Program-made: the position numbers and the translations under genes
Part shown: positions 8,195-41,066 of the stretch, one piece after another
How the letters are laid out: every line of letters begins with the position of its first letter
Position numbering within the stretch: position 1 is the first letter of the stretch
Notes under the pieces: model-generated
Told to the model about the DNA's origin: nothing
The model's input: only the letters and a program-made list of their open reading frames with translations
Databases searched by the model: none
Assembly (NCBI GenBank): GCA_949710005.1
Contig: OX453275.1
Span: 12,471,151 to 12,535,150, forward strand
Length of the DNA stretch: 64,000 nucleotides
Direction: 5' to 3'
DNA from: Ricordea florida
Taxonomy: Eukaryota > Cnidaria > Anthozoa > Corallimorpharia > Ricordeidae

Positions 8195-8618
8195 TTAAAG
8201 ACTGTAATTCTTGCCTCGAACTAATAATAATTTAGCGACATTGAGGCTTAGCTTGTTAGCTTTAAGCCAAAGATCTATATGACTCAGTTCACTATTGGTC
8301 TGGTTCTCAAGGTCAGCTTTGCTAGGTGCAGAAACGGTAGCATTGGTGTCATCAGCATATATTCGAGGAGAGCCAATGTTCAAGCAATTTGGTAGGTCCT
8401 TTATGTAGAGGTACTCCACAGCTCAGTGGACCTGCGCTAGATAGGTGATTGTTTACATTGCGTCTTAGCACACGGTTAGTTACGTAAGACTGGAACCAAT
8501 TCAGGGCATTTTGGTCGAGCCCATAACTGTCAAGTTTTTGGAGAATCATTTTATGGTCAATGGTGTCAAAGGCCTTCTTCAGATCAACGAAAATAACGCC
8601 AATGAGAAGAACTGCCAC
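8195..8618 (-). pseudogene. LINE reverse-transcriptase fragment
   Basis: Two minus-strand frames together give the palm of a non-LTR reverse transcriptase. The first has FVDLKKAFDTIDH (catalytic Asp of motif A). The second has the catalytic YADDT box followed by NKLSLN. The stretch normally between them, around the GVPQGS motif, is deleted, and the two halves are in different frames near 8405-8420. Nothing of the endonuclease domain is present, so this is a dead, truncated copy. Confidence 0.85.
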
Positions 8619-8639
8619 GCAAGTAATGGCGTCTCTACC

Positions 8640-10167
8640 CAGGATGAGAGTGAAGGAGCCACTGCAAACATTTTGTCAAGTGGTGTTGACTTTGCTGGCC
8701 AAAGAAAATTTCAAAAGACGGTGCCGAAGACTTCAAGAGCCAGTTTAGCACTTTTAATACAACAATGACTAAGGGAATGGTTACCCAGGCTTAATTCGAG
8801 TAATAAATAACCTCGGCCTGAAAAGAACTTTCACTGAGATGCTCCAAGTGGCCAATGGCCGCTAGGTCGGTAACAAAAGTCCCTTCGGGTGATGATGGAT
8901 AAACACGAGTGGAACAGATCCCAGTCTTAAGGAACGTTCTAACAAGGGGCGTCTCTAAGCTGCCCATAAGAAATCGAACGAAAAATCCTCAACAAACGCT
9001 AAGCACAGCTGATTACAGAGTGACACTGGTAAGTACTTGGTGCAGGCTGCACTCACATAGTAAGGACACTAAAGTAAGCATGGGCTGGGGATGATTAAGA
9101 ACACTGAAGTACGGCTAAGGATGAGTACGGCTAGAGTACAGCTGAGGTAAAGCTTGGCCACTATATTTATAACGCAGACCATTCTTTTAATGGGTGAACC
9201 TCTCAAACCATAGCCTGCACCAAGTACTTACCGCGACACTATTATACTTTATAAGAAACTTACTGTCACTTCCTCAATCGAATAATATATCGATATGCCT
9301 TTCTTGAACGTATCGGCGATATTCGGCGATATTCGGCAATATTCCAACCAACACATGGAAAAGTATAGTGTTCTACGATTATTCACAGCAGTACTTTGGA
9401 GGATTTGCGACCGCAAGTCTTGTTAGGATGTTAGGCACTAACCAACCTTAAAGCAAGCCCTTCCTCGGATAAGTCCAGATGGTACGGGTCCGTAATCTCT
9501 AGAATCTCTTGAATCACTTGAATTGTCACCCAACAACCAAACATGTCCCTTTGGAATCTACCAAACAAAAATAACCCAATGAGATAACAAGCCCCAAAAT
9601 TCTTTACTTGTAACAATATATGTTTTGTTCTTATGAGATTTGAAGACATACGCCAACGAAAAGAAACATAACACACGAAAAGCAAGGGTATTACGTAATA
9701 CACCAAACACGAGATACAGTGTTTCATCACATATCAAACACAGAAAATTGAGTTGAAAATACGGAGCGTGGCGAAGTGTTTTTGGTGAAATTGCAAGTAT
9801 TAATATGTACTGAAACATATGTATGGAGCGTTTGATATAGCTTCTCGAGCAAACTGATTTAGAAGGAGAAATTATCGATGTCAAAACGAGCCGTGTTTAA
9901 TCAGATAATAATATACAAACACGTCACGGTTATTGATTTTCGATGTCTTTCACTTATGCATTGCTAATTAATTTGAGAAGTATTTATGGATACTTATCTG
10001 CTTCAACGCAGTACTTGTAGGAGAATACCGTAATGTACTAACTTTTTTTGATAAAGCGGTGAGCAGATGGTAACGTCAGACATATTACCTAGATTATCTA
10101 TAATTATGATTTAAATTATGTAAATGAATATATGAAAGATCATATATTTGAACTGCAGAGTAATATG
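8640..10167. other. Non-coding DNA with an inverted repeat and a dispersed repeat
   Basis: GTAAGTACTTGGTGCAGGCT at 9029-9048 recurs inverted at 9212-9231, outlining a roughly 200-bp fold-back unit. The stretch at about 9720-9960 is homologous to 52,630-52,865 (shared CATATCAAACAC, GATATAGCTTCTCGA and GTGTTTAATCAGAT), so it is a copy of a dispersed repeat family. Confidence 0.6.
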
Positions 10168-18152: not shown

Positions 18153-21100
18153 GTAGATACTTGTAGATTGTATTTTATAAATTGTTAGATTTGCTTCACG
18201 TGTTATTTTCTTTATTCTTAAAAAAATTAAATCTTTTAAGTTTGAACGTAAAGTTACAGTACTTCTGTAACTTTTTGCATCTTATTTTCAGCTACCTTTC
18301 CCAGTCATTGGTTCGCTTAATGGTGTGTGTATGTTTGCCAGTAATCAAAATACTACCCTAAGAAACACAATAACAGATGATGCCAAGGTTGTGTGGAAGG
18401 TCTTCCATGAAAAGTAAGATTGATGACAGGTTTTAGAATAACAGTTAAATCACAGTACCATCAATAACTAACTATTAGATTATGAGCTCGAGATTTCTTT
18501 GGAAATTTCTATAGAAACTGAGAGCGAATAATCTAATTGTTTTAGTAAAAATAATGATAAATCAATCGTGCCTATGTAAAAATACATAAATACTAAAATA
18601 ATCTTCCCTCGAAACTTCACTTACTTAAGTGTGAAAATGTTGCCATTTTAAAACAATCTTCAACCTAGAAGCTCAGCCAGTTAGATTGTGGCATTTGCAT
18701 TAGTACACTAGTAGATTTTTACTACTTTGAGTTATCTTCCTACTCATGTTGGAAGATAATTTTACCTTAAAATTGCTTTACTCCATTGGATAATAATAAA
18801 AAAACCTGGATGGAAGGGGCTCTCATCTTTTTTACTTTGCCTTAGTGTGTTCAACTGTTTTAACTTTACATTTACTTTATTAATAGTAGTGTTCATGCTT
18901 TAACTTCCTGTTTTCTATAATACCTTCCTAACAGAATTACCCTGATCATTGTAACTGCTGATGACAATTCCAGTGACCTTCATCTTAACAGATTGTTGGA
19001 ATTTATCTTTAATGCAATGGTGGGTATGAAACACATGGCTGGCATAATAAGCATAAATGTTTTATTAGTCAAAGAATAACTAATAATTATTCTTTTATGT
19101 ACATGTATAATAACATGTACAATCATGTATGCCATCATGGTCTGGTGTGCAGCTACATGTTTATGCTGTATCCATATAATATTATATTTCTTTAATATGT
19201 CAAATTTGCCATTTTATATATACATGTTATATGTACTTGTAATTCATTGTTTCTTTCTGTTAAATTGTTTTTTCCTGTTGCCCATAAAAGTCTAATTGGG
19301 TAAAAGAGGGTAGGATGCGCTGTTCTCCTTACATGCATAATCAAACTTCCATAAGCAAGTATCTGTCAAAATATGATATGTTGATATGTTTTTTAGTTAT
19401 TTACAAAGTAGCATTTTGAACCAAGGTGAAGTTCAGATGTATGTGACTGTTATTTAGCAAAGTAAACAGCTGTTCTTAGGAGGAACAAAAATGACTTTAG
19501 CAGGCTGTACAGTGAAGTACGGCCAGTTAAATTGACCAGTCACAGCATGCATACTAACTGAGAGATAATATTGCAATAAAATATTGTTACAGTAAAAACT
19601 AGTCATGTATTTGGCCATGTTTACAGTATCTGACCATGTGTGTAATGTTATAATAGTGGAACAGTTTTCTTTTTTCAGGTTCTTTTATTAGGAATTGATG
19701 AGCTGACAACCATCAGGACTGTGGAGGTCCTTAAAAGAGAGCTACGGGTAAGACTACAGAACAGTGGGGGACACTCGGTCCTGGTACAAATTAATCAATT
19801 ACAATTTCTATTACAACTATTACACTATTACAGTTTCTGAGAAGAACCAATACATGTATTTGAGAAAGTGTTTTAAACAAAAATTTTCCAAATTTGAAAA
19901 ATCCACAGGTTTAAAGGGTAAGTTTGCTTTTGCAATGGTTAATGGAATCAATTGCGTGATTGATGGTTATTGATGAGGGCACTTATTATGATTGACTGAT
20001 GTAAATGTTTACTGGTGTCTAATTACAGCCAACTGTGCAGTTTCATTGTCCAATTTGTTACAAATCTATAGAATACAGTGTTATACATGCAACTGAGGAA
20101 AAAGCAGTTAATGAATTTGAAGAAATTGTAAAGATAATGATTAACAAGTCAACTGGACAGGTAAAAACGCATGGATGTACACTGTACTACACAAATAGAG
20201 AGTGATAAAAATACGGCTTTGGGACACAGAGATTTATTCAAGGATATTTTAGCTTGTAACCTAAATAAATTTAGCAAAGCTTAATCAGAGATTTAATCAG
20301 AAATATTTTTACTGATTAAGTTTTGCAAGATTGCTAATGTTAGTACACACTAGTAGAATACTAAGCAGTAATAAAAGAAAATTTCTAGGACACAGAATTT
20401 TAGGTAATATTTTATAAAGCAATATTTCTGGGACACATAAATTAATTCATTTTTAAAACTTGATTTAAAAAATAGAAAATATTCATAAAAGTAATTATGG
20501 ATCGATTAAATGAGCTGAGTACAAAACAATTAAGCTCTTTACTTTCATGGTATAGAATTCAAGACAGATCAAGAATGACTGTTAAAGAAGCTAAAATACA
20601 AGCATTGAATAATATACCAGAAATAATTAATAATGTAAATCAAATTGTTGATAATAGGTGGGAAATTTTTAGAGCTATGGATAATGCACCAAGGCGAAGA
20701 GCAAATAGACCTCAACCACCTCTTCCTATACCACAAATAAGACCAACAAACCGACCAAATTTACCGCCTTTAACTATTCCACAACCAATGCTGGGAACAC
20801 CGCCAGGATCACCTGATAGATATAGACCTGGAACGCCACCAGGTTTACCACCCCCAAACCAACCCAAAATAAATATTAATAAAACTAAAACAAAAAGACC
20901 TCCCCCACCTAAACCAACACGCCCACCGCCGCCTATTCCAACAAAAACTAAAAAACCACCAATAAAACAAGATTCTATTAAAAATACAAAACAAACTCCT
21001 TTTGTTGGAAATATATTAAATAAGTTTTGGAATTTTGTAAAACCATATATTCCTGAAAAAGTAAAAAATAAAAAAGAAGAACTAGCTAAAAAATTTATAG

Positions 21101-24100
21101 AAAGATATAAAACAGTAAATAAACCAAAACAAATAAAAGCTAAAAGAGATTATGTGAAGGAGGGTGCAAGACGTAAAACAAAAATAAAACCAAATATGTC
21201 TGATAGTAAGAAAGATGAATTTAATGAAGAAGAAGAAGAAGAAGAATTCATTATAAAAGAAAATGTAAAAAAATTCAAAAAGGGTTATTTGAAACAACAC
21301 ATTATAGATGGTAAAAAAGGATATTCTATTGATGAATTCTTGAAAAAAATAAAACCAAAAGTTATAGATATTATTAATAAACATAAGAAACCAATTAAGG
21401 TTAAGGCTATATTAACAGTTAAGTTTGTAAGAATAGATCCAAAAGAAAACGAAATTAGGTCTGTAAAAAAAATACTTTCAAAAGAAAACGGAATTATAGT
21501 AGAAATCGAAAAATACTTTCATGCTAAAATAATGATAATTACTGAAGCAAGAGATTTATCAATAGAATATAATAGTATGGTTAGTAATATACAGCAAGAG
21601 GTTTTTGATTTTGAAGAAAAATACATTAATATCGGTTTAGAATTCGATTCTGTGACACGTTTTGATGTTGGAATAACTCCCTACTCATTTATTTCTGGAA
21701 GTTCATATATTCCAACACCAAAAAGATTAGCAGCAAAAAAAGCTACTATTAATATACAGAATAAGTGTGAAGATTGTGGTAAACTTTCATTAACAGAGGC
21801 GGTTTTCCCAAGAAAAAACCATAGGGAGAGAGTAAATAATGAATTGTTGGAAAATTGTAAAAAATTAGACTTTTCTGGTATTGAAGGGCCAATGTTATTA
21901 AAAGATTTTTCCAAGTTTGAAAAACAAAACAAATATCCAGTTAATGTATTGAAATATGATGAAGAAGATGATAAAATATATCCTGCAAGATTAAGCGATA
22001 AATGTTATTGTAAGAAAGAAGAAAAATGTAAGAATTGCGGTTGTATAAAAAAAGATTGCAAGAAAAAACAGAAATGTAAGAACGAAGGATGTATAAAACA
22101 CGAATGTGAAGAATGTGGTTGTAATAAATGTGATTGTAATAATTATGAATGTAAGTTATGCGATTGTAAAGTTATAACATTAATTTTAATAAATAATGGT
22201 GAAAAAAGCCATTATATTTTAGTAAAAAATGTTAGCAGACTTTTATCATCAGAAATTGATAAAAATAAGAACAAAAAACATTTCTGCATTAGATGTTTCA
22301 ATTCATTTTATGATGAAAGGGTTTTGCTAGAACATAAGGAATACTGTGATTCACACGGGGAAGTTAAAATAAAAATGCCCGCGAATAAAGATGGGAGTCC
22401 AAAATTTATTTACTTTAAAAATTTTAAAAATAAAATGCGATTACCTTTTGTTATTTATGTAGATTTTGAAAGCTGCCTAATTCCAATACATTATTGTTCA
22501 CCAAATGAAATTAAAAGCTTTACTGAAAATTACCAATTGCATAAAGCATCAGGATTCTGCTATTATATCAAATGTTTTGATGAAAGTATATTGCCTGATG
22601 ATTTTAAAAAGTGTGTGAAGTATACCTCAAAATCTGATGATGAGGATGTAGCTCAGATATTTACAGAATATTTAGAAAGAGATGTTAAGAAAATTTTTAT
22701 GTTAATAGAAGAAAGAAAGAAGAAGTTTGAATTTTATAATAAGAAGAATATGTCAGAAATGGATAAAAAAGATTATGAAAATGCAACTAATTGCCATATA
22801 TGTGATCGAAAATTTAATGAAAATACAGAAGAAGATTTTAAAAAAGTAATAGATCATTGTCATCTTACTGGGAAATATAGAGGAGCAGCACATAATATGT
22901 GTAACTTAAAATATATGATTCCTAAATTTATTCCAGTAATAATTCACAATCTTTCAGGGTATGATTCACATCTATTTATTAAGAATCTTGGTAAAACAAA
23001 GGGTAAAATTAATTGTTTGGCTTGCACAGATGAAAAGTATATTAGTTTTTCAAAGAAAATTTTAATTAATTATGATTGTGAGGGTGAAGAGGATGATAAT
23101 GATGATGGTGGTGATGTAGATGAAGATGGAAATACAAAACCTATTACTAGAACAATAAGATTCATTGATTCTTATAAATTTATGCAAAGCTCTCTTAGTG
23201 GATTAGTTGACAACCTTACTAAATGTGGAAAATGTGAATCATGTAAACCAGGAAAATGTTTGAAAAGCTATATAAAAGATGGAAAGATTATTACTTTTAA
23301 AGGTGTTGGTAATTGCGATCAATGTAAGAATTGTAAGTTATTAGAAAGTATGTGTTTTTCACCAATAGATAAAAATATGAAAGAAACTAAAAAACATTTT
23401 GAAGGAGAAAAGTTAAAACTATTGTTGAGAAAGGGCGTGTTCCCTTATGATTATTTTGATCGTATTGATAAACTTAATGAAACAGAAATTCCAACAAAGA
23501 AAGAATTTAAATCAATTCTTAATAATCAAGATATTTCAGATGAAGATTATGAACATGCAAAAAATGTATGGAAAACATTTGATATGAAAACAATGAGAGA
23601 TTATCATGATTTATATCTAAAAACAGATGTATTACAGCTAGTCGATGTATTTGAGAACTTTAGAGATGTATGTATTAATAATTATAGTTTAGATCCGGCT
23701 CACTATTTTACATCACCAGGATTATCTTGGGATGCAATGTTAAAATTAACTAAAGTTAGTTTGGAATTGTTTAAAGATGTTAATATGCTACTTTTTATTG
23801 AGAAAGGAATTAGGGGAGGAACATCCCAAGTATCAAAAAGATATGCTAAAGCTAATAACCCCTATATGACAGATTTTGAAGTAGATAAACTTATAAGTTA
23901 TATTATTTATCTAGATGCTAATAATTTATATGGAGCCGGAATGAGCAAGAAATTGCCTAAACGAGGATTTAAATGGATTCCAAATGAAGAGCTTGAAAAT
24001 TGGAGAAATATACCTTGTATACTTGAAGTTGATTTGGAATACCCAAAAAATCTTCATGATAAACATAAAGATCTACCTTTAGCTCCAGAAAAACTTACTG

Positions 24101-27100
24101 TTAATAAAGTTAAGAAATTAATACCAAACCTATTAAATAAGCAAAGATATGTAGTTCACCATGAAACTCTAAAATTTTATGAAAGCCTAGGATTAAAAAT
24201 AACAAAGATTCATAAGGGAATTAAATTTCAAGAGTCTGAGTGGTTAAAACCCTACATTGATTTGAATACTAAATTAAGAGCACAAGCTAAAAACGACTTT
24301 GAAAAAGATTTCTTTAAACTTATGAATAACTCTGTATTTGGTAAAACAATGGAAAATATGAGAAAAAGGATAGATGTTAGATTAGTTAATAATATAGAAT
24401 CAGCCAAAAAATTAATAAGAAAACCAAACTTTAATCATTTTACTATCTTTTCTGAGGATCTAGCTGCTATAAATATGAAGAAAACAGAAATAAGATTTAA
24501 TAAACCAATTTATGTTGGGTTTTCAATTTTAGATCTAAGTAAACAAATAATGTATGATTTTCATTATAATTATATCAAAGAAAAATATGGTGGAAAAGCA
24601 GAATTACTTATGACTGATACTGATAGTCTTGTATATATTATAGAAACTGCAGATTTCTACAAAGATATAAACCCCGACGTTAAAGAAAAGTTTGACACTA
24701 GTAATTACTTTAAAGATCACCCATCTGGAATTGAGGTGGGTGTAAACAAAAAAGTAATTGGAATGTTCAAAGATGAATTTGGAGGAAGTATACCTACAGA
24801 ATTTGTGGGTTTGGGAGCTAAACAATATGCTATATTAATGGATAATGGTAAAGAGATAAAGAAGAATAAAGGAACAAAGAAATTAGTTGTTAAGAAAACA
24901 ATAAAATTTAATGACTTTAAAAACTGTTTGAATACAAAAGAACCACAAATGAGATTACAAAATTTAATTGGTTCAAAACTACATGATATTTACACAAAAA
25001 CAGTTAATAAAAAAGCACTATCTGCTTATGATGATAAGAGAATAATTTGTAAAGATGGGAAAAATACTCTTCCATATGGACATTATCTTACCAAAACAGA
25101 ATCTGGTGGTAACTCAGTGTCATAAGGAACAACCTGTAACTCCTCCCTTACAAATCCACGTCTAGGTCCATCAATTAAATAATATAAAACCGGCTGATTA
25201 GATGAAATCAAACTTTTTGAAATATTATAAATTTTTATACTCCAAATGGGGTCTGTAGCCCGTCTTTTTTCACCACCTTCAAGTTCACCAGGAGATAATA
25301 AATATCTAACTTTAACCTCTGGAGACAGTCTATCCTCATCAAGCCCTACCTCACGTTGGTAATTTTTAGGTTCAATATTCACTTCTTTCATTTTTATAGC
25401 CTTAACGGGTTCTTTACCAGTTATTCTAGTTGGTGTATTATTCAAAGTTTTTATAATATCAGGTAGTCGTTTCACCCATACTCTAGATCTTTCATCACTA
25501 ACCATTTCTTGTGCATATTGGTGACTAAATAATCTTTCACCTAATATTCTGTTTGCGTTTTCCACAAATGCTTGAGCTCTATGATTTCCAGCTTCACTTC
25601 TTTGTATAAGTTTTGTAACCTCACCCATAAATTCTTTTCCTGGATCAACCATTAATGTTTTAGGGTATTTTAATTTTCTGGAATATATTTTCTCAAAAGC
25701 TTTTGATATTTCTAGACTTTCTTTTGTGGTTAATGACTCTGCATCTTTGTATCTAGAGGCTACATCAACCACGACTAATACGTATTTATATGTTTTTCTT
25801 CCAACTCTATCATGCGGTAAAAATAATAAATCTGCTTGATGAATTTGATTAGGTTTATCCACAGTCCAGCGCGGTCTAGGTATATATTTTGGTGGAGGTA
25901 GATATATTTGCCATATTGCTTGTTTTTGCAACCATTGTTTTGCTGAATCTTGACTTACTTTTGCCTTCTCGGATAATTTATTAATCGCAGAATATCCTTT
26001 CCAATATCCCTCGGTTGAATAATATATCTTACTTAAATTTTTTGATAAGGTAGAACTCATTTAAAGATTAACCAAAGTATCTTATAAATTACAATGACGT
26101 CAGAAAAAATTAATCCAAATAGAATTCCAAAGGAGCCATTTGGTTTGAAAGCTGAATCAACGCTGAACCGAATTACTCTCAATCCATCATCAGCAAGCCC
26201 CGGAGAAACTCTATATATAAATATACCAAAACTTTCAGAGAATTTAGTGATTGTTCCAGGAAGCGTATATTTACTATTCAACTTAGATGTTGAAGGACAT
26301 GCTAATAATACTCTCGTGAATAATGTGGGTAGTAATCTTGTATCTAGACTTAGGGTTCTTTTTGGTGGTGAAACATTACAGGATACGCAAAGATATGATA
26401 TATTTCAAACCTATCATGATTTATTCTTAACAGAAGAAGATAGAGAGGATAGATTAAGACAAGGCATTTCTTCCGAAAACATGAGAAAACTTAGAACAAA
26501 TGCCGGAGATAAGAAAACCCAAGATGGAAAGGAAGTGGCTCTTGCAACAGTACATAACACCAAATATCATATCCCACTAAATCATCCTATTCTAAAAGAT
26601 CATGGTGTTTTCTACCCAAAAGCTCTGGAAAATCATCTAATATTTGAGATTACACTTGCTCCAATTAATGATATCGTTGTTTATTCCGACACAACTAAAA
26701 CACCATCATATTCAATCAAAAACTTAGAGTTGGAATATTCTTCAATTTCAAGCGAATACTTAGCTCGCGAGGCACAGGCAGCTTATCAGGTTGGTAAAGG
26801 ATTCTTTTATGAAAATGTAACTTTGTACAAAACTTTTACCTTTTCCATAGGCGGTGATAGTGTTATAAATCAACATATTAATTTACCTAGAAGATCAATG
26901 ACTGGGATATTATTTTTGTTTAAATTACCAAACGCTGCAGGAGCACGTAACTCTGAGAATTTTTACAATCCAGGGATAACCTCGATTAATATAGATGTTG
27001 ATGGAGTTCCAAATCGTTTATACTCAAAGGGGATGATACCATCAGATCTATGGGAGTCGGTAAAGAAAAGATTTGAAAAAGAGTTGGGTTCCTCTCGTTG

Positions 27101-30100
27101 GTCAATAAAGGAAAAAGCTTTTTATGATGATAAGTTTGCCTTGTGGGTTGATATGAGAACTCACCCCGATAATAACATTCATGGAGGTGGACTAGCCTTA
27201 AGCAATACACAAGATGGCGTAAAACTAGAAATTAAACGAAAACAAAGCGGATCTGGCACCATAACCTGTTATATGTTTGTTGTTGCTGATGCAATGATGG
27301 AAATAATGAATTCAAGTTTGAGATCAATTAAGTACTAAAAACATAATGTTATAATACAAAAATCATGGAAGATTTACGAGATAAAATTCCTTTTCATTGT
27401 ATTATAACAGGACCAACAAATTGTGGGAAAACAAAGTATCTAATTGAACAGCTTAGAGGACCATTCCTAAAAATTTTTGATTACATTGTTTTAATTTGCC
27501 CAACTTATTCTAAAAATAAAACATATCATAATTTTGCTAATAAAGATAAACATTTCTATGTATTATCACCTGATGCAAGTAATGTAGATGAGATTAATGA
27601 ATTGTTAAATGATTGTCAAACTTTATTCTCTGGAACAAATACATTAATAATTTTAGATGATTGTGCTGTATCTAATGATCTGAAGAAACGATCAAACAAG
27701 TTTATAGATTTAGCATTTTCTGGAAGACATCATGGTTTATCAGTTTGGGTTCTAACTCAACAATTAACGTCGATAGCAAAACCATTTAGGGAAAATGTTG
27801 CATGCGTTGTTACTTTCCATAACCCATCTCAGAAAGGCATGAAAATGTTTTTTGAAGATTATGGTGGTGATTTGGATTATGAATTAGGTAAAAAGTTTGT
27901 ACAACTCCTGAAAACTGAAAAATATTCTAGGTTATGTTTGAGTTTGCGTTACCCATTTAATTGTTATTTGGAAATTCCAAACGGAGCGTAGTGAAGTGAT
28001 TTCCTTCGGGTTGACAAACTCGATTTAAAAATAACCCATTTATTATCACAAAGATGACAAACGTTGAAGATTATATTAAAGAAAATACCGACCAACCGAA
28101 TGGAGAAACGGTAAAAGATGAGATAAAAGATAATGAAGTTGAAGTTAAACAAGAATCACTAGCCATTCTCGCAACCTTGGGAACAACAAAGGAATATTTA
28201 GGGATTGATATGAGTCTGGGTGATGTAAAAAAATTATCAGTTAAAGATGTTGAAAAATATTTTAATCGTTATCAAGCGGTAATGGGTAAGAAAATTAGTG
28301 GTGGAGTGGTAGATTCATCCCTTCAATTAATTTCTAAAATTATTTCTTACATGGTTCCTGTAGATGATATTGATTCGCTTTGCAAGGATTTGAAGAATGA
28401 TGATTTAGTTAATCGTGAACTAACAAACATTGTAGGGCTATTAGCATTGAAAGCAGGAAGACTGGCTGCACTTGCTAGCGGATTATTTCAAGTAGCTAAA
28501 CACGTTAAATTCAACAAAAATCAACAAGTTACAACTACAACTGAACAGACTACTGAGCAGGCTGATAGCGTGTATGATACTGTTCACTAAGCATGATTTA
28601 AAGATTTCTTAATGATATGTAAAATAATGTCTGAACAAAATGAACAAGTTGAACAAATTACAGCCGATCCCAAACCAGAAAATAAAGATACTAAAAAACG
28701 GGAAAAAGATCCTAAAAAAGTAGCAGCTGGTAAAAAATTAGCTGAATATAATAAAAAAGCAAAAGATGCATTAGCCAGGGAAATGAAACGTGAAGAGCAA
28801 ATTAAAAGGGAAGAAGAGGTCCTACGGGCTGCGGAGCAAAATGAAAATACAGAAAGTGTGTCTAATCAAGCAAAGCCTTGGCTTCCAGAGTTATCTTTTA
28901 CTACTGTTTTATCTGTTGTTGGTTTAGGGTTTACAGCATTTGATCTTTTTATGAGATATCGGGAAAAAGCTAGAGATGGATACACTGAATATAAAAATAG
29001 GATACCAGATTTATCACAAGTACCACAAATACCACGACCAACAAAGACACCATTGCCTATAACTCCAAAATCATTAGGAATGGAATAATTACTAAAGTAA
29101 TCTAAAGATTTCTTACTGATGTAGTAAAAAATCATGTCAAACGAAAACAAACTTGTGAAAACTGTTACTGATTCTGCAGTACTTATAGGATTAGGGGCTG
29201 GAGTTGGGTATGTGGCTAAAAAGGTAATGAAGGAATCATTTTTGAACGATCCATCTTCAAGTATTACAAATTATGCAAAATGGGTGGCTGTCCTGTCTGG
29301 TAGTATGTATCTAAAAACATATTTAGAGGAACAAAAGATTTTACCAAATTAAACATGGCGGCAATAGCAATGCTGGTTGGAGGAGCTATATTGAATGCAA
29401 CAACATTTGTTGGCGGATCATATCTTGCAAAACATCTATCAGGAGATAAAACCGATACGGAAAAAATACGACACGATAAAGCAATGGAAAAATATCAAAA
29501 AGATTACACCGAATATCAAGAAAAAAGGCAGAAACTAATTGATTGGAAAATGCAACAAAAAGATGAAAAATATCAAGCATCAAAAAATATTTCAAAAACA
29601 AATGAAGCTTTTGAATTATATAGCCAATTGCATGAACCAAAATTCTCAGATTATTATAAACCAAGCGATAATCAAAAGACGGGGGAAATGTTATATGTGG
29701 GTGGTGGTATGTTAGCTCTTGGTTACACAGTTAGTAAATTTTTATAGTTAGTTTTCTTACTTCAAGCATATTTAAAGATTTCTTACTGATGAGTAAAAAA
29801 TCATGACAGAAGATATACCATTAGAAGATTTATCTAGAGGATATGATGATAATGATAATGATGATGGTGATGGTACATTTTATCAAAACCCAAATACATC
29901 TACATCTATTGATAGAGATTATGCTGGTTATGATGAATATGACCAATCTAGGGGTCGGGCTGAATGGGATATACCATCTGAAAGAAGGAATCTAGGTGAT
30001 GTTTTAAGAGAAAGAGATGAGGAATATGATAGAAGGCGAGAAGCAGGCCAAGAACTAAAACGTTATTTACCAAATTACAATCCCGATGATGCAACATTTA

Positions 30101-33100
30101 ATGTAGAATTTGAGGAAGATGGAAGTATAACAGCAAAATTAAGTAATAATCCAAGAGCAGTAAAACATACAATAGTTGATAAAGATGAGAATCTTAAGCT
30201 TGAAGATTTACCAAAAACAATGATAAAAGCTCTAGGTGCTGATTATGAAAGCATGCTGGAAAAATATAATAATGCCGCATCAGAATTGAAAAAATCCAAT
30301 GAAAAAAATAAGGAATTAGATAATGCATTGCAAGGATTGAAAGCAACAGCAGAAGTATATCCGCAGGAGATTAGCCGATATGAAGAAAGAGAAAAAGAAC
30401 TACGGCAATTCATTGAGAGACAACAGGTAGAAAAAGCAAAAAATAAAAGTCTTTTCGATCAAACTGTTAAACAGAATATAGAATTAAAAATACAAGCAGA
30501 GAAACTTTTGGATGAAACAAAATTATACAAAGAGGAAATAGATAAATATAAGAAGGGTAAATCAAATTCAACAAAGTTAGAACAAAGCAATGAACGATTA
30601 AAATCTGAGGTTGATAAATTAAGAGAACAGATTAGAAATAAAACAATTTCAAACGAAGAACAATTATCAGTTATTGATGGGAGAAAAGATGAAATACTTA
30701 AAAATTTACCATTACGAGAGAGGTTAAAATACATCTTTAAAAAGTATGGTTTTACAGCATTTGCTGTTTTAAGTGCTGTAGGTGTCATCATTGGGGTTAT
30801 AGTTTCTAATCTTTCAAAGGGTTTATCAACATTAGGTCGAGGAGTTGGTAATGGTTTGAAAACTCTTGGTAAAAAACTGGGTGAAATATTGCCAGGAATG
30901 GTTGGAGCTATCGTGAGCTTTCTATTCAAAACAGCTGGGCAGGTTATTGGATTTTTAGGTGAAAATGCTTGGCTTTTGATAATGGCTGTTGTTCTATATT
31001 TTGTGGAACAAATGAAAGGTGGAAAGAAGAGAAAGTAACAAATTTCATCGTAGATGGGCAGCAAAGCCGGTCTAAAGATAACGCGTTGAGTAGTAAAATA
31101 TAATATGGATAACTACAATGGAATTTATCCTGGGCGGCCTAATAATCCAGATCCAAGTTCCTCCCTTCAGTCGGTTAATTTCAGATTGCAAAAATTAAGC
31201 GAAATACAACAAAATCTTAAGAGAGAAATTAAAAATTACGAAGATGTAAGAAAAAAATATAATAGAGATAGAGATAGAGGAATATTTAAAAAAATAAGTG
31301 TTTGTAGTGGTACTGTTTCAGTTATTCTATCAGCAAGTGGTTTAGGAACTTCTCTTACTGGTTTTGGCGCTGTTGTTGGTGTTCCTTTAGGGGTTGTTGG
31401 TGGAATTTTTGGAGGATTATCAGTTGGATTTGGATATGCATCAAAAAGACTTTCAAATAAAGTTAGTAAACACGAACAAATAACAGCAATAGCAAAATCA
31501 AAATTAAACACAATAAACGATTTGGTTTCAAAGGCTTTGAAAGATAATAAAATATCTGATCAAGAATTTTCTATAATTTTAGCAGAACTGGAAAAGTTTC
31601 AAAAACTAAAACGAGAAATTAGTATTTTGTTGAACAAATGAAAAATAGAAAGCAGGTTTAAAAACATCATTCCGTTCAGTAAAATACAATATGGATGACT
31701 ACAATAAAATTTATCCTCAACTACCTAATAATGCTGATCCAAGTTCCTCCCTTCAGTCAGTTAATTTCAGATTGCAAAAATCAAGCGAAGTATTACAAAA
31801 TCTTGAGAAAGAAATTAGACATTACGAAGAAGTAAGAAAAAAATATAATAGAGCTAGAGGAATATTTACAAAAATAAGTGTTTGTAGTGGTACTGTTTCG
31901 GTTATTCTATCAGCAAGTGGTTTAGGAACTTCTCTTACTGGTTTCGGCGCTGTTGTTGGTGTTCCTTTAGGGGTTGTTGGTGGGGTTTTTGGTGGATTAT
32001 CGGTTGGATTTGGTATTGCTGCTAAAAAACTTTCTGGTAAAGTTAGTAAACATGAACAAACAGCCGCAATTGCAAGATCAAAATTAAACACAATTAACGA
32101 TTTGGTTTCAAAAGCCTTGAAAGATAATATTATATCCGATCAAGAATTTTCTATAATTTTAGCGGAATTGGAAAAGTTTCAAAAACTAAAACAAGAAGTT
32201 AGACAAAAATTTAGGAAAGATACAGAAAAAAACTTCGACATGTCTATAATAAGGAAAAAAGTGCGAGAAGATCTATTAAAAGAATTAACCGCTCCAGGAC
32301 ATTAAAAATTTCATACGAGAAAACTGATGTTGGTTGTAATTGTTTTGCGGGAATTAGAAATACCAGCGAAGATGGAGCACCCTACGGGTGATATGAAATT
32401 AATTAGCTTTACATTTTATTCTAGATCTAAAGACCAGATTATCTGAAACACAAAGAATAAAATGTTATTACACGATTTCAAAACCCGATATCCAAACGCC
32501 AACCTAAATAAATTTACATTTGTGAATGATTCATATGGGGGATATATTAAATGGAAAGTTAATGGAACAACAGTTATGTCAAATGATGATCCTACTGGAA
32601 AAACATGGACCGATGATCTTTCCACTAATTTGAAAACATTATTATGGGGAGATTTAGGCTTAGAAAAGAAACCTAAAGTTGGTTCGTTTCCAAAGAGTTT
32701 ATCAATTACAAATCAATCTTATCCAATACCCGCTATTAAATTTGGCGACTTTACAACTGATGTAACAAAAACGTTAACCTCACTAGTTATATACGTTTCA
32801 GATAAAAAGAATTTCACAGCAAATATGAGAAACATATTTAAATCACAGGTTATAACATTTAATTCCGCAAAGGAGTGCAAAAAATGGTTGAATAAACCAG
32901 ATTTTAATCATTGGCCTCAACAACTTAACTTCGCGGTTTGGTGCGCAACATCTGGTTGCGGTATAAGTCTTTTTGAAAGCCTAAATTATCCCAAAATAGT
33001 TAGCAGTTTTATAAAATTTCATATATATTTCACAATAAGGCGAATATTGTATGAATTGAAACTTCCCTTACCAGATGAAAAACCTTTTTCAATAAAAAAT

Positions 33101-36100
33101 AATCCATATAATAAAGTTGCATATAATAAATTATGTGAAGAGTTTGGGATTAGTAATAATTCTGACTTTAGATGGAAAGGTGGAAGAAATCATGGTTTGG
33201 GAGATCAATTTATTTATTACAGCTCAGGAGGAAATGAAAATTTATATATTGTAAGAAATTATGATCATGATGCAAATACTTGGCCTGGGCAAAATAAATT
33301 TTCTGATGAGGGTTATAAAGATGGAGATGGAAATAAAATCTCTTTTATCAGAAATGATGTATTTAGCGATTTCAAATATGCTTGGTTTATTCCTATGGAG
33401 GGGCATGGTCTCACCAAAGCGGGGCTTGGAAGATTAAATCGATCCGCTGAAGCTTTTGTTTACTGTATATTGGGAGCGCAAGTTAATACTAGAAACCCAA
33501 TTTATGGTAAAGGTGGTGGTGCAATAGAAACACAACAAGAATTCAAAGCCTTATTTGAAAGTTCTGTTATAGAAAATGATATTTCTAAATCTATTCAAAA
33601 TTACCAACAATCTGTGCAGGAAACTAAATTACGGCTTGATTTGGCTGTTGCTCCGGGTGTTTGGTTGATGCCAAGTAATATGATCATAAACACGGAGAGC
33701 GTGGTTGGGTATAATAACAAACTCATGAAAGCCACTGAAGATATGAATTTTGGAGTAAATAATGCATTAAATGTTGAAACAAAAACAGTTGGAATAAGTC
33801 ACAGTTTAGGATCTTCAAAGGTTTCTTTACCTCATAAACCCGAAACAAAACCAAAACCTATAATTAAAAAAGATGAAACTCAAACAGATGTGATTAAACC
33901 AGAAAATAATGATACAACGCAACATCAAAATAATCTTATAGTGCTTATGGCTGTTGGTGGTGCAATAGCTTGGTTCCTATTTCGTTAATGTTTTGATTAT
34001 AGAAATTACGGCATAGCTGGTCCTGAGCGAAGCTCGATTTAAAGATGAATATGATGTAATCAAAACAAAATGCTAAGTATTACAATGTATGATTCTGAAA
34101 CGAGAGTTTATTTAGATCCTCCTCTGGAAAATCTTCAAGAGTTACAACTACTGGATTGTAATATAAAAACTAAAAAATCTTTTAGTTTCAAAGATGAACA
34201 AAGAATAACTGATGAAAGGGATCGACCGCTCGTAATAATACAACCTGGTACATATTCACTTCTTGATATTCAATCAATAATTACTAATAGTGAAAAGGGT
34301 TCAAATATATCAATAATTAGTGGTGATACTATTGACTATCTATTTTCTAATAAGGTATTTAACATTAAAATTACTAAAGATTTACAAGTTTCTTTAGGTT
34401 TACCTGGAATTTTAAATAGTGGTAAATTTTATCCTATAAATTCTAATATTAAGAAACCATTGAGGCTTATGTGTAGTATAGTGGATAATAGAATGTCATA
34501 TATGAATAATAAAAAATCAGAAATTTTAAAAATACAACCATCACAATTACTAGCAAACATACCATCAAAAGATTATCCAACAATTCCAGTTAAAAAATAT
34601 GATACACTAATAAACCACTTTGATTTAACCATTTTAAATGGAGAATGGAAAAAAATTGATGTGGGTGGAGCTCCTATAACTATAAGTTTAAGATTCAAAT
34701 AAATTTAGATCTTTTGTTATGTAACCATTTATTGAGTTATATAACATAATTAGATAATATTAATCTTCTTCACCCCATAGTTTTTTCAAATACCTTAACT
34801 CTTCAACATCAATACACCAATCTAAATATCTAGATGGATGCCATGCCACAGGCATTAAATCATCATTTAAAACTTTATATAATTTGCGTTTATGCGTTTC
34901 TTTCATTAAATCATAATGTAATTTTTCTTGAAAATACCATTTATGAATATCCTTATATTTATTACAAACAAAACAAAAACTAAATTTTCCAGTAAAAAAA
35001 TTATCATAATTATAACAAAATATATCACTTTCTAACATTTTAATAAATTTTTTATTAAATATATTTGTTATATTTATTACATCTTTAAAAAATTTAACAT
35101 CTAATATTTCATTAATCTCAAAATCTATATCAACGGGGAAACTAAAACAAATATTGTTATATTTATTATTATATTCAGCAATAAATTTAATACAATTTTT
35201 TTCATCAAAAATAACATTTCGAAATCTTTTTATAAATTTTTTTATATTTTTTAACAAGTCTTCTTTAATTTCCTCCATGAAATCACAAAAACTTAGTTTT
35301 TCTTTATTAAAATAATCAAAATCAAAATTAACTATTTCCATCTTTTATTTTATATTTTTTAAATCTTTAAATCATTTTATTCTACATTCTTTACAGGAAG
35401 CTTTTTGTTTACCATGCTCACATATTTGGGATCCTCCACATTCTTTACAAAAATTTTTTTGTTTTCCATGCTCACATATTTGAGATCCCCCACATTCTTT
35501 ACAAAATTTTTTTTGTTTTCCATGTATACATATTTGTACCCCTTTACATTGTTTACAATAATACTTAATTCTATCATGCTCACATATTTGAGATCCGACA
35601 CATTCTTTGCAAAAATATTTGCGTTTTTCATGTATACAAGTATAGGGGCAAGTAGTTGTGACTTTTTCAATTAAATTTATAATTTCCTCTTCTTTAAATT
35701 TTTTAAACTCATTAATAAAATCTTCTTTTATATTAAGTTTTGATCTACCTTTAATTTTTAAATATCCAGCAATTCTTTTCAAATTTGTTTTGCTCAGCTC
35801 ATTTAATCGATCCATAATTACTTTTATGAATATTTTCTATTTTTTAAATCAAGTTTTAAAAATGAATTAATTTATGTGTCCCAGAAATATTGCTTTATAA
35901 AATATTACCTAAAATTCTGTGTCCTAGAAATTTTCTTTTATTACTGCTTAGTATTCTACTAGTGTGTACTAACATTAGCAATCTTGCAAAACTTAATCAG
36001 TAAAAATATTTCTGATTAAATCTCTGATTAAGCTTTGCTAAATTTATTTAGGTTACAAGCTAAAATATCCTTGAATAAATCTCTGTGTCCCAAAGCCGTA

Positions 36101-39100
36101 TTTTTATCACTCTCTCAAATAGTTATTATTAGATGTTTAAAATAACTCATCTGTAAGAAAAGAACAGGGAAGGGACTTTTTAAGAAAAGCCGCAAATGAA
36201 GGTCACAAAACATGGTAAGAGGGCAATTGTTTTAATTATTTGAGGCCCTGAAACATAATTGCACTAACTGAGTAATTTTTATAAAGAAAAATAATTAATA
36301 ATGACTGAGGACTCAAAAATGTGGTCATTGGTCGTAATAATAGGTGTCAGGTTACTGGGGTTTCCAGAAAAGAAAACGTGTGGGCTTTTCTTTGGGCCGT
36401 AAATAAGTGGTCTTATTAACTGGGTGGTCATATGGTGCGGTTCCACTTTACGTGTATCTATAAAAAAGGGCAGTTTCATAACAATCTGCTGTATCAGCCA
36501 CAGTGGAACATGTACAGTATTTTCAATGGTATCATGCGAAATTTATTGTCATCATTTACTTGATGAAAGCATATACAAAACCTTTTGTTTTTTATCTTTT
36601 CAGTGATTTTATTTTTTCAATGTCTAACCTTTTAATGCCTAACTGAGGATTGTTCCCTGTAGTCAGTGATAAGTCAGTCGTACAGTTCAAGATTATTCAG
36701 GTGACCCTCCACGGGAAAACGTACACTAGCGCTTATCCGTTATAAAAACTAACGGATGGCTAACGGATCGCTAACGGATGGCTAACGGCCAATAAAGCTT
36801 TCTAACGGCTTACAGCTAACTGTTAACGGATAGCCGCTAACGGCTAACGGCTTACAACTAACGGCTAACGGCTTACAACCAACGGCTAACGGATGGTCCC
36901 TAATGGCTTACGGTTCAATGGATAACTGAGAGCAGGAAGGTTTATGAGACTCAGTGACTCAGTTTCGGTAGCGTCCATGAAGAAATTTTTGTGATATTAC
37001 TATGATGACTTCAGAACTTACGTTGGGCAGTCAAATGGTAAATCCAAGGATCTGACAGCAGGCTGTGATGAAGGGCTGTTACGGTTTACACTATCACACC
37101 ATCAATATAGAAGTCCAAGCAATAGCTCTGGGCTCGAAATTACGACAGATACATGTACATGTACGGTCGCCAATGTGACTAAAACTTCTTTCTTGGCGAG
37201 TAAAAATTCGGGTCTAGTCGCCACTTTGATAGTCTGCTACACAGCCGTTATTAGTGTCGTCACGCAACGCTCCTCCCCACTAACGGCTGCTGAAAGCCGA
37301 ACCACATTCCTTTCCTTTTGTGTTTGCGGTCTAACGAACAAACCAATCACGCATCTAGAAATTGACTGTGACGTCAGTTTTCGCGGGGAAAGCCAGTCGA
37401 TTCCGGGCGCGAGGATATGAACATGTTTTCCAGCAAGTCATGGACGGAACTCCTAAGAAAATTGTCGACAGTGATTCGAAATGCTTAACTTGCTCTTCGC
37501 CGTCAGCAAATGCAGAGAAAATTTATATTTTTGGTAAAAGTTCGGTCGACTTGCAAGGGATTATTAAATCGTCCCTTAATGTGGATGTTAGCTGTTTCGC
37601 GAACAGCGGCAAGATATTTGTTTGCAGGAGCGTTTGCTACAAACGATTGACGAAGTTTCAGCGATCTTCTGAAAAACTGAACGAAATTCGCCAAGAAATC
37701 GAAGAAGTCTTCAAAACAAGGGATGTACCGAGAACAAAGCGCCTTCAAAGGGCTTCAGAAGAATTACACGGCAACATTTCTGAAGGAAACCATCAGGACC
37801 AGGTCCGCGATCGACACAGGAGAGTTTAAATCGACAGAAAGTATCCAAATCGCTTCAGTTTGGCACAGGCGAAGCTACCACTTGCACTTCTTCTGCTAAT
37901 TCGAGTTATCAGGATTTTTCTTCATGGAAACGGCCTGTGCCTGCTTACCTTCCTGGTTTTTTATCCCCAATTCAAAGTCAGCTCAGTCATCTGTTGAGTG
38001 CTTTCCTAAATCAAAATATGGCAAGTCCTCGAAGTGCACATGCATTTCTTCCCGGAGTGACTTCAACTCCAAGATCATCCGGCGTCCAAGAACAGAGTGA
38101 AGTGCAACTAAAAATTCAGTATCCCACTAAAAATGTTAGCAAATCTCTAACTGTTCATATCAGTCCATTGGAAAAGCCTTAGCACATGGCGTTCCGTCTC
38201 AAATTGCGGGAGCTGTTATGAACTGCCATTCAGTGCGAAAGCATATTGTGGAAAAGGTGTTGAAGGTCGTCAACAAAGAAGTTGCCGAATTATGTTCAAG
38301 AAGAAAGCCATCAATTTTAAGGAAAATTGAAAAGGAAGATTTGGAGAAGTTTGACCTCTAGTTAGTTTGTGATGAGTGGCGTGAACGAGCTCCCGTTTTT
38401 TATTCATTCCTTCTCACTTCGGCTATCAACAAAAGAACGAAATCTTTCGGCTGGTTTGGAAGCTTGGCTATCGCAGGATCTATTCTGTTGAAACAGCGAA
38501 ACAAGGACATGAGCGCTGCTGCATCTGTGATAGGTATTCTCCTGAAAAGCAAGTCTGTCGAGGTGCGATTCGTTTTATTGATCTTGAGCTTATTTTACTT
38601 TAGTCTGCTACACAGCCGTTATTAGCGACGTCACGCAATTACTAATAACGGCTGTGTAGCAGACTAATTTTACTTTTGATACTTTTTATTTTGTGTCATA
38701 CGTATATGAAATTGTTCAAGCTAAATTACAGGACATTTATTATTTTAAGGTCAATCTGTATTTGATAAAACAATACACACAATAAAGTCATAAGACTGCT
38801 TTATTCTCTGAACGATAAGAATAATGGTGGTATTTACAAGAGAGAGAAAATCATGAATATTCCCACTGATCTGACCGTCAAAGGTTTAACATAATTTAAC
38901 GAGAGATGCTCGTACAAAAATAGCAAATTCAGTTAAAATTGGTCTCTAGCAGACACTCCCTATCTAATATGATATTTAATAACACATTAATATAGTTTCA
39001 ACGAGCAAGTTACATGCGAAAATCGAGAAAATACTTAAACGTATGTCTGATAACAGTGAACTTTGATCGCAGCAGAGAAACTATTGTTTAAGCTGACGGA

Positions 39101-41066
39101 GAATCTAGAAGGCTAACACTCAGACTTACCACTGCCTTAGGACATGAGCCTTATCAATTGTCACGGCGCAGAGCTTATTCGAATAGACATGGTTGTCTAA
39201 CATTCTTCGCCAGCGATCATTCATTAGCCATGCTTCAGGTGAGCCGAAGACGATAGAATATTTTCCCTTTTCAATCTTTGTAACGTCTAACTCCTCTTGT
39301 GAACTGATACTTATTGCAGACAATCCAAGATCTGTTAGAATTTTAACCTGATCGTCCATAAGGCTTACCAATGGCGACACAACTACAACAATGTGACCTG
39401 CACTCTTGTTTACATGGTCAAACGAACGTGAGAGCTTGATAAATTAGCGATTTTCCGAACCCTATCGGCAAGTTTACAAAGACATCCTTCTTATCGACCA
39501 CAATTGCTTGAATTGCCCGCTTCTGATGCGTATTTATTTCCAAAATCTTAAATAAGGAAGCCACTCGAATAAATGCTTCCTCTAGCGCGGCCATTTTGTT
39601 TTGCTTTCTCCACATTTGGGGTACCGATAAAAGCAAGGCTGTGATTGGATGAAACTTCTGGCGCGAACACCTTCCAGAAAATGGGAGCTGAATTCTAATT
39701 GGCTAACCGCGGGAAAGGAATGTAGTTCGGTTTTCAGCAGCCGTTAGTGGGGAGGAGCGTTGCGTGACGACACTAATAACGGCTGTGTAGCAGACTACCA
39801 CTTTGACGACTGTTTTCGTGTTTTAAATAAAAGACTCAAAGTAAGAAACAATTTCTTGAGTCTCGTTTTATCAAAGTCATGTTTACCTTCAAATGTTAGC
39901 TTTTAATCACCTTCAAATCACGACCGATCGCGAACTCGAGAGAACATTACTGCAGTTTCTTCACGGCGATCGCGAGCGCAATATTAATTTTGTTTGAAAG
40001 GGCGCTAGTTTTTCTACTAGTGTTGTTACAGTCTTATGTTTTAAGTCGTTGGCAAGTTGTTCTGTCTGGCCCGTCCAACAAGGTTATCGTTCGATAGATT
40101 TCTACTGATTTCTACTGTCTTGATTGTTTGACGAAATGCCTCTGACTGAGCGTTATTGTAATCTGCTAACAGGTCTGCTAAAGGCTCTCACGGCCTGCTG
40201 CTGACAACTAACTCATGTACAAACGACTCTAACACTGTCTTTACTGCTGTCTTCTAACGGTTCTACTAACGGCTCTAACGCTTTGCTGCTAACGTCTAAC
40301 GCTTGGGCTAACGGCTCTAATGCTTTGCTGCTAACGTCTAACGCTTGGCTAACGGCTCTAAGGCTTTGTTGTTATCTTCTAACGGTTCTACTAACGGCTC
40401 TAACGGTTTGCTGCTAGCGTGTAACGCTTGGGCTAACGGCTCTAACGCTTTAAAGAGATCTTATAACGGATGACTAACGGATGGCTAACGGATGACTAAC
40501 GCTACTGTCCGTTTAACGGATAAGCGTTAGTGTACGTTTTCCCCTGGAGGGTCACTTTTTATTATTTTTATTATTTTAATTTTATTTGTTATTTGTTTTT
40601 CTACTAGTGTTGTTACAGTCTTATTGACAATCTTTTGGAGGGGACAGACTTGACAGGAAGAATCACCCAAGCAGTTGACATTATTCTGTGTCCTGATGTT
40701 TCAGTTCTACAGGTACATGCAGTGAAGCAGGTTTCCCCTTATTCAGTACCACGTTTCCTATAAAATACGTTACTGGGGTAGCAGGGTTGGCGCAGTGGTG
40801 AGAGTGTTCGCCTTCCACCAATATGTCCCAGGTTCGATTTTCGGCCCCAAGGTCATAAATTATGTAGGCTGAGTTTGTTGGTTCTCTACTCTGCTCCGAG
40901 AGTTTTTCTCCGGGTACTCCGGTTTTCCCCTCTCCACAAAAACCAACATTTGATTCAATTTGATTTGGTTTGATTTAATATGATTTGATTCGATTTCATT
41001 TGTACTTTACAGTGTCCCCAATTAGTAAGTCAGTGCTAGATACAATCGACACTCAAATAAAGTTCA

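What the first reader, a model, noticed from the sequence alone, without database searches (positions are those of the whole stretch)
20197..36115. Complete, apparently intact Polinton/adintovirus-like element in a host intron
Seen: 323-bp terminal repeats without a visible mismatch, AG/CT termini, CAAAT flanks and no broken gene among fourteen. Known: PolB, rve integrase, packaging ATPase and jelly-roll capsid genes define this virus/transposon class, and most genomic copies are eroded. Inferred: a recent insertion that may still be mobile or able to make particles. This is the main object of the window.
Basis: partly seen in the sequence, partly recalled or inferred. Interest (0 to 1): 0.9.

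Follow-up and report, generated by a model that had tools for sequence, protein, structure and literature searches.

The report
Young virus-like transposon with damaged integrase
A recently inserted 15.9-kb virus-like transposon (Polinton/Maverick kind) that belongs to a family with thousands of mostly young, mixed-and-matched copies in one animal genome, but whose own integrase gene is damaged, so this copy is probably not able to move by itself.

Summary
The element is real: perfect 323-bp terminal inverted repeats, AG...CT ends, a 5-bp target duplication and 14 open frames, with an rve integrase, a capsid protein, an A32-type ATPase and (by motifs read by eye) a protein-primed-type PolB. 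"No broken gene" is wrong: the integrase lacks seven codons between its second Asp and catalytic Glu, which all 37 compared sequences (34 other copies) keep. "Host intron" was not shown. The larger result is the family. In this 538-Mb genome, ATPase, PolB and integrase motifs occur 3255, 2992 and 1971 times, each with 0 control matches; 3255 of 3542 ATPase sites within two mismatches are perfect. Of 21 copies whose ends I sought, 16 could be read: all 16 have target duplications, 11 have identical repeats. Yet copies differ by median dS 0.39-0.66 under purifying selection and are mosaics: 12 of 12 gene-tree swaps are rejected. This fits recent insertion from a diverse, recombining, virus-like pool. 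Maverick abundance in corals is in print (PMC11370458, passages); eight searches showed no report of this intactness and mosaicism.

The parts
20192..20196 (.). left copy of the 5-bp target-site duplication CAAAT
20197..20519 (+). left terminal inverted repeat, 323 bp, identical to the right one; reaches 23 nt into the PolB frame
20497..25125 (+). 1542-aa family-B DNA polymerase of the protein-primed type (exonuclease motifs and polymerase motifs A, B and C read by eye); endonuclease VII/HNH-like insert near aa 750-805
   Evidence: translation; Pfam Endonuclease_7 2.3e-6 on the aa 640-1000 fragment; PHROG endonuclease VII; no Pfam polymerase match, so the polymerase name rests on motif definitions recalled and read directly
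25083..26060 (-). rve-type integrase, 325 aa; catalytic D, D, E present, but 7 codons missing between the second D and E relative to 37 of 37 other sequences (34 copies); overlaps the PolB end by 43 bp tail to tail
   Evidence: Pfam rve 8.8e-8, 32.8 bits over 3-85 against 41.4 and 36.7 bits over 3-101 in two other copies
26094..27338 (+). major capsid protein, 414 aa
   Evidence: Pfam Capsid_N 1.8e-5, 24.8 bits against a cut-off of 24
27365..27991 (+). A32/FtsK-type genome-packaging ATPase, 208 aa
   Evidence: Pfam Pox_A32 7e-12
28054..28590 (+). conserved 178-aa protein, unknown; dN/dS 0.27 among copies
28612..29088 (+). 158-aa protein with one membrane-like segment
29355..29747 (+). 130-aa protein with one membrane-like segment
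29803..31038 (+). 411-aa coiled-coil-like protein with two membrane-like segments
   Evidence: weak SMC-type matches
31105..31641 (+). 178-aa protein, first of a tandem paralogue pair, one membrane-like segment
31691..32305 (+). 204-aa protein, second of the tandem paralogue pair, one membrane-like segment
32462..33988 (+). 508-aa protein of unknown family; stop-free in 82 of 85 scored genome matches
34070..34702 (+). 210-aa protein of unknown family, penton candidate only by elimination; stop-free in 149 of 150 scored genome matches, 66-100% identical
34760..35341 (-). 193-aa accessory protein, variable between copies
35372..35815 (-). 147-aa protein with repeated Cys/His units; starts inside the right repeat with the same 7 residues as PolB
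35793..36115 (-). right terminal inverted repeat, 323 bp
36116..36120 (.). right copy of the 5-bp target-site duplication CAAAT

Best explanation
This is one recently inserted provirus-like copy of a Polinton/Maverick-class element (sensu lato) of an anthozoan-like animal. Shown: repeats, 5-bp duplication, core gene set (PolB by motif reading), thousands of related motif sites genome-wide, youth of the examined insertions, purifying selection among copies, and mosaic ancestry. Inferred: linear DNA copies are made by the element's protein-primed PolB from the inverted repeats, packaged by the ATPase into shells of the capsid protein, and joined to host DNA by the rve integrase with a 5-bp staggered cut. 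Copies diversify and recombine while they replicate, before integration. Each insertion then decays like ordinary host DNA. The present copy inserted recently but has lost part of its integrase catalytic core, either after insertion or before it with integrase supplied by another copy; it is therefore probably not self-mobile. The confidence given is for the recent, mosaic, Polinton-class insertion with a damaged integrase; for an infectious particle stage alone I would say about 0.4.
For: Anatomy. Duplications in 16 of 16 copies whose two ends could be read (15 exactly 5 bp, one 7), and 11 of 16 with no internal repeat mismatch; pooled divergence 9 of 4723 sites. Repeats of these 16 elements are 84-98% identical to one another, median 91%. 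dN/dS (pairs with dS under 1) is 0.08-0.39 with median dS 0.39-0.66 for nine genes, 12-21 copies each. Mosaicism: of 19 elements paired by repeats, 16 are absent from the 101 scored MCP matches; 14 of these 16 have MCPs 79-89% identical to the window's, one is 98-100% identical but split over two frames, one was not seen. 3rd-position divergence is heterogeneous in 13 of 20 comparisons with the window and 86 of 197 pairs at p<1e-6; 12 of 12 foreign gene trees rejected by the AU test. Youth genome-wide: 3255 of 3542 ATPase motif sites perfect. In copies chosen without regard to similarity, 12 of 12 have open INT and MCP frames as far as fetched. Integrase loss.
Against: No particle, transcript or free DNA was seen. 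No protease or penton could be recognised. PolB has no Pfam polymerase match. Five further copies whose ends were fetched did not show repeats of this type at both expected places. Lesions are not rare at element level: of 20 central stretches of 7-10 kb, 7 show a lesion: in-frame stops in INT of L047, ATPase of L029, the 130-aa gene of L044, the 411-aa gene of L036 and L042 and the PolB part of L031, an MCP match split over two frames in L030, and in L044 also a loss of the ATPase end and two genes. L007 has lost most of INT. The repeat-dated set was chosen by similarity of repeats or MCP, not at random.
Confidence: 0.77

Rival explanations
1. A purely intragenomic transposon: the copies move inside the germ line without leaving the cell, many parallel lineages stay active, and old copies are quickly deleted; mosaicism arises by recombination of co-replicating copies in one nucleus. 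(Shares the recent, mosaic insertion with the best explanation; differs on the particle stage.)
For: Motif sites number in the thousands; no close relative was found in IMG/VR with MCP or PolB (records near this genome may be left out); some copies have lost integrase or structural genes, and the window copy inserted recently although its integrase is damaged, which could reflect help in trans.
Against: MCP and ATPase are among the most constrained of the nine genes tested (dN/dS 0.13 and 0.08), which an element that never packages would not need; between-copy dS of about 0.5 with few near-miss ATPase motifs.
Confidence: 0.35
2. Mosaicism is gene conversion between resident chromosomal copies rather than recombination before integration.
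For: Many resident copies give ample opportunity; MCP shows local stretches of about 99% identity on divergent backbones (those eight copies were chosen for MCP similarity).
Against: The two repeats of one element differ at 0-3 sites over the compared length in 16 of 16 copies, although repeats of different elements differ by a median 9%; for three of the 16 the comparison stopped at an apparent indel near position 200-255, so a tract beyond it is not excluded. Target duplications are intact in 16 of 16.
Confidence: 0.2
3. The seven-codon gap in the window integrase is an assembly error, and the copy is intact.
For: One assembly only; no reads available.
Against: The gap is exactly in frame (21 columns) and the rest of the gene is open.
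Confidence: 0.07
4. The window element is an assembly join or contaminating free virus.
For: None found.
Against: The 5-bp duplication flanks the element; the joined flank matches only the two flanks of this site in the assembly; the same architecture with its own duplication is seen at 15 other places.
Confidence: 0.02

Closest known systems
Polintons/Mavericks (class Polintoviricetes)
   Same: PolB of the protein-primed type (by motifs), rve integrase, capsid protein, A32/FtsK ATPase, long inverted repeats with AG...CT ends, 15-20 kb size
   Different: 5-bp rather than the 6-bp target duplication of vertebrate Mavericks (PMC8097293, passages); no recognisable cysteine protease or penton; gene order differs from vertebrate Mavericks (PolB and INT tail to tail, ten frames from MCP to the 210-aa protein on one strand)
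Cnidarian Mavericks and the Stylophora coral adintovirus/polinton (PMC10120064 and PMC11071308, passages)
   Same: cnidarian-type host (inferred here); cnidarian capsid proteins are reported as the only metazoan ones outside the main Maverick-Polinton cluster
   Different: no sequence of theirs was on hand, so relationship was not tested; in the Stylophora element the terminal protein is a separate gene (passage), whereas here PolB is one 1542-aa frame
Mavericks in the corals Siderastrea, Dendrogyra and Colpophyllia (5.20, 6.74 and 1.41% of the genome; PMC11370458, passages)
   Same: very high Maverick load in an anthozoan genome
   Different: the passages seen give repeat-masker fractions only, not per-copy intactness, dating or mosaicism
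Adintoviruses (definition in PMC11071296, passages)
   Same: animal host, PolB plus rve integrase plus hexon-type capsid
   Different: no chromodomain found in the integrase; OTU domain not demonstrated; hexon similarity not testable here

Membership tests
Polinton/Maverick sensu lato | long terminal inverted repeats and target-site duplication | tested here: met
   323 bp perfect; CAAAT; 16 of 16 copies with both ends readable, of 21 tried
Polinton/Maverick sensu lato | rve-family integrase | tested here: met
   PF00665 8.8e-8; this copy has lost 7 core codons
[quoted passage not shown]
   motifs read by eye (definitions recalled); no Pfam, NCBIfam or PDB polymerase match
Polinton/Maverick sensu lato | double jelly-roll-type major capsid protein | tested here: met
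   PF16903 Capsid_N just above its cut-off; fold itself not predicted (tool off)
Polinton/Maverick sensu lato | A32/FtsK packaging ATPase | tested here: met
   PF04665 7e-12
Polinton/Maverick sensu lato | Ulp1/adenain-type cysteine protease (reported in 74% of Polintons, PMC4028283, passages) | tested here: not met
   no protease match in 17 frames given to Pfam; not decisive, since the feature is not universal
Polinton/Maverick sensu lato | penton/minor capsid protein | tested here: inconclusive
   210-aa and 508-aa proteins without a convincing profile match; structure prediction unavailable
Vertebrate-type Maverick | 6-bp target-site duplication | tested here: not met
   5 bp in 15 of 16 copies, 7 bp in one
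Adintovirus | integrase with C-terminal chromodomain | tested here: not met
   only rve found at E up to 10, within HMMER's filters
Adintovirus | PolB with N-terminal OTU-like domain | not tested
   only a reading of the sequence; no profile named it
Adintovirus | hexon recognisable by BLASTp with adintovirus hexons | not testable with these tools
   no adintovirus set held; no relative in the IMG/VR scan or phage records

The most novel reading that the evidence does not exclude
A living polintovirus population of an animal: thousands of proviruses, perhaps up to a tenth of the genome, are recent landings from an infectious, recombining pool in which a capsid-core allele spreads across different replication and integration backbones, while the host genome acts as its archive.
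Probability: 0.4. Interest if true: 0.9.

Novelty: new variant of a known kind. Interest (0 to 1): 0.7.

Why it matters
Whether Mavericks/Polintons are still viruses is an open question: particles had not been observed (PMC8097293, passages), and 96% of vertebrate copies are defective, with at most 38 intact ones in a genome. Here one animal genome holds thousands of motif sites that look young, with strongly constrained capsid and packaging genes and demonstrable recombination between lineages. That turns the question into a simple observational test on a living animal (are there nuclease-protected genomes?) and offers a rare view of gene flow in an animal polintovirus population.

Tried and rejected
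Rejected: (1) an intact, self-mobile copy (integrase gap); (2) host intron as shown fact (no spanning gene shown); (3) a burst of one master transposon (copies differ by median dS 0.39-0.66); (4) nine integrase 'stops' of 123 as nine broken genes: in at least one (C16:12.40M, L008) the frame from the start codon is open, so the stop appears to lie outside it.

Led nowhere: IMG/VR scans with MCP and PolB, phage records, PDB searches by sequence or profile, NCBIfam for the unknown proteins, Rfam and tRNA scans. No empty site was found in this assembly: the joined flank matches only its own two halves. The first identity plot mixed strands and was redone. Starrett 2021 is not held and is known to me only by recall and citation. 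Host species was not identified; anthozoan is an inference from 61 GFP-family matches, with 0 of 14 control genomes.
Full report
OBSERVATION. The inverted repeats at 20197-20519 and 35793-36115 are identical over 323 bp, the termini are AGAGAGTG...CACTCTCT and CAAAT sits directly outside both. Between them are 14 main open frames. Pfam finds rve in the integrase, Capsid_N in the 414-aa protein and Pox_A32 in the 208-aa protein. The 1542-aa frame shows the exonuclease and polymerase motifs of a protein-primed family-B polymerase on reading (motif definitions recalled; translation). An endonuclease VII-like domain lies inside it. No profile named it a polymerase. GC is 0.30 in the element against 0.37 and 0.40 in the flanks.

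THE INTEGRASE IS DAMAGED. Aligned with 37 other integrase sequences of this genome, the window copy lacks seven residues between the second Asp and the catalytic Glu. All 37 have them, six of the seven columns are 97-100% conserved, and D, D and E themselves are present in all 38 (a first pass gave 19 of 19). By coordinates the 37 come from 34 copies, three having been fetched twice. L007 was left out because most of its integrase is deleted, and L041 because no integrase lay in the piece. The rve profile match shrinks from 41.4 and 36.7 bits over positions 3-101 in two other copies to 32.8 bits over 3-85 here. No comparable window-specific loss was seen in eight other genes compared with 11-20 copies each; the PolB, 508-, 210-, 193- and 147-aa genes were not tested in this way. 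That the gap abolishes activity is an inference.

THE FAMILY. The window lies in a 538-Mb, 48-contig genome. Patterns for conserved peptides of integrase, ATPase and PolB match exactly at 1971, 3255 and 2992 places, with 0 matches of the reversed control each. On the first 10.9 Mb of contig 1, 58 of 60 integrase motifs have an ATPase motif 1.8-3.6 kb away in element orientation. Of 100 ATPase motifs there, 39 have both integrase and PolB motifs in place, 26 PolB only, 19 integrase only and 16 neither; 23 of 88 PolB motifs have no ATPase partner, so other lineages or fragments exist. If each of 3255 sites were a 16-kb element, they would fill about 52 Mb, near 10% of the genome; this is an upper-end extrapolation. 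A GFP-family search gives 61 exon-like matches and none in 14 control genomes, so I infer an anthozoan host (GFP as an anthozoan marker is recalled).

YOUTH. In a capped repeat search, 19 elements have a similar repeat at both ends, 15-23 kb apart. I fetched the ends of 20 copies besides the window: the ten best capsid matches after it and ten of the repeat-paired ones; six further paired elements could not be fetched. Five of the ten capsid-chosen copies showed no repeat of this type at both expected places and were dropped. The 16 that could be read all have matching duplications (15 of 5 bp, one of 7). Eleven of 16 have no mismatch within the repeat up to position 316 (278 in one shorter repeat); the other five have 1-3, and in three of these the comparison ended at an apparent indel near position 200-255. 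Mismatches beyond those limits were dropped as the repeat boundary. The pooled value is 9 of 4723 sites. With assumed rates of 1e-9 to 5e-9 per site and year this is about 0.2-1 million years on average. A genome-wide check does not depend on that choice: allowing two mismatches raises the ATPase count only from 3255 to 3542, so 92% are perfect at the residue level, which under neutral decay means about 0.4-0.8% divergence at most. Strongly decayed copies would be missed. Twelve copies taken at every eighth row of the integrase-motif list on contig 1 (the 65th row left out), without regard to similarity but holding the intact motif, all have open integrase and capsid frames; the capsid frame is cut by the end of the fetched stretch in 6 of 12. 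Scored-match lists are stop-free in 100 of 101 (capsid), 114 of 123 (integrase), 82 of 85 (508-aa) and 149 of 150 (210-aa); these lists are capped and favour intact copies.

LESIONS EXIST. Of 20 central stretches, 7 show a lesion: six have one gene copy with an in-frame stop (INT, ATPase, the 130-aa gene, the 411-aa gene twice, and the PolB part of one), one has its capsid match split over two frames, and one of the six also has a multi-gene deletion. So a fair share of complete elements probably carries at least one lesion, as expected for young but decaying insertions.

DIVERSITY, SELECTION, MOSAICISM. Between copies, median dS is 0.39-0.66 and dN/dS (pairs with dS under 1) 0.08 (ATPase), 0.13 (capsid, integrase) to 0.39 (411-aa). 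Like for like, repeats differ by a median 9% between elements and 0.19% within them. Genes tell different histories. Of the 19 repeat-paired elements, 16 are absent from the 101 scored capsid matches: 14 of these have capsid proteins 79-89% identical to the window's, one is 98-100% identical but split over two frames, one was not seen. Conversely, of the ten best capsid matches five have repeats about 75-92% identical to the window's by aligned piece and five show none at both ends. For one element the 3rd-position divergence from the window is 0.02 in one gene and 0.35 in the capsid gene (heterogeneity over genes p=3.8e-38). At p<1e-6, 13 of 20 comparisons with the window and 86 of 197 pairs are heterogeneous; 7 of 20 and 111 of 197 are not. 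For 18 elements and four genes, all 12 of 12 foreign tree topologies are rejected (AU p at most 3e-4). That the two repeats of one element stay nearly identical argues for recombination before integration.

MECHANISM. The best reading is a virus-like cycle: protein-primed copying from the repeats, packaging, integration with a 5-bp stagger. Five of the 14 proteins have membrane-like segments, which may point to an internal membrane in the particle; this is speculation. Both terminal genes start inside the repeats and share their first seven residues; a GGGACACA-like word (up to one mismatch) stands at repeat position 25 in 16 of 16 and again near 209-234 in 15 of 16, possibly a binding site.

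COMPARISON WITH PRINT. Mavericks are 1.4-6.7% of three coral genomes (PMC11370458, passages). Vertebrate Mavericks are 96% defective, with at most 38 intact copies per genome and 6-bp duplications (PMC8097293, passages). Cnidarian capsid genes fall outside the main metazoan cluster, and thousands of capsid genes per genome are known in some protists (PMC10120064, passages). A Stylophora coral element is known (PMC11071308, passages). PMC11071296, PMC11244446, PMC4028283 and PMC10586311 were also seen as passages. I did not find intactness, dating or mosaicism of coral Mavericks in print (searches; listings of an open-licence library, so subscription papers are missing).

Noticed in passing
L021, L014 (ends of other copies): The accessory genes near the right end vary: two tandem, strongly diverged (about 30%) relatives of the 193-aa gene in L021 and an expanded Cys/His repeat gene in L014. 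Looks like a fast-changing accessory region.
   Followed up: partly
L007 (C2:5.25M): A copy with intact capsid and ATPase frames in which the PolB frame breaks off early and only the first 38 residues of integrase remain.
   Followed up: partly
window 20221-20228 and 20430-20437 (and mirror): A GGGACACA-like word recurs in the terminal repeats at similar spacing in 15-16 of 16 elements.
   Followed up: partly
window 20497-20650 and 35660-35815: PolB and the 147-aa Cys/His-repeat protein share their first 7 residues through the repeat and about 36% identity over 52 residues (a PolB start of another copy against the 147-aa protein); perhaps a common DNA-binding N-terminal domain.
   Followed up: no
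G000 contig C11, about 9.0-19.7 Mb: Large clustered family of GFP-like exons, many with stops in the matched stretch.
   Followed up: no
window 39126-39702 and 8352-8675: Fragments of a DEAD-type helicase and of a reverse transcriptase in the flanks.
   Followed up: no
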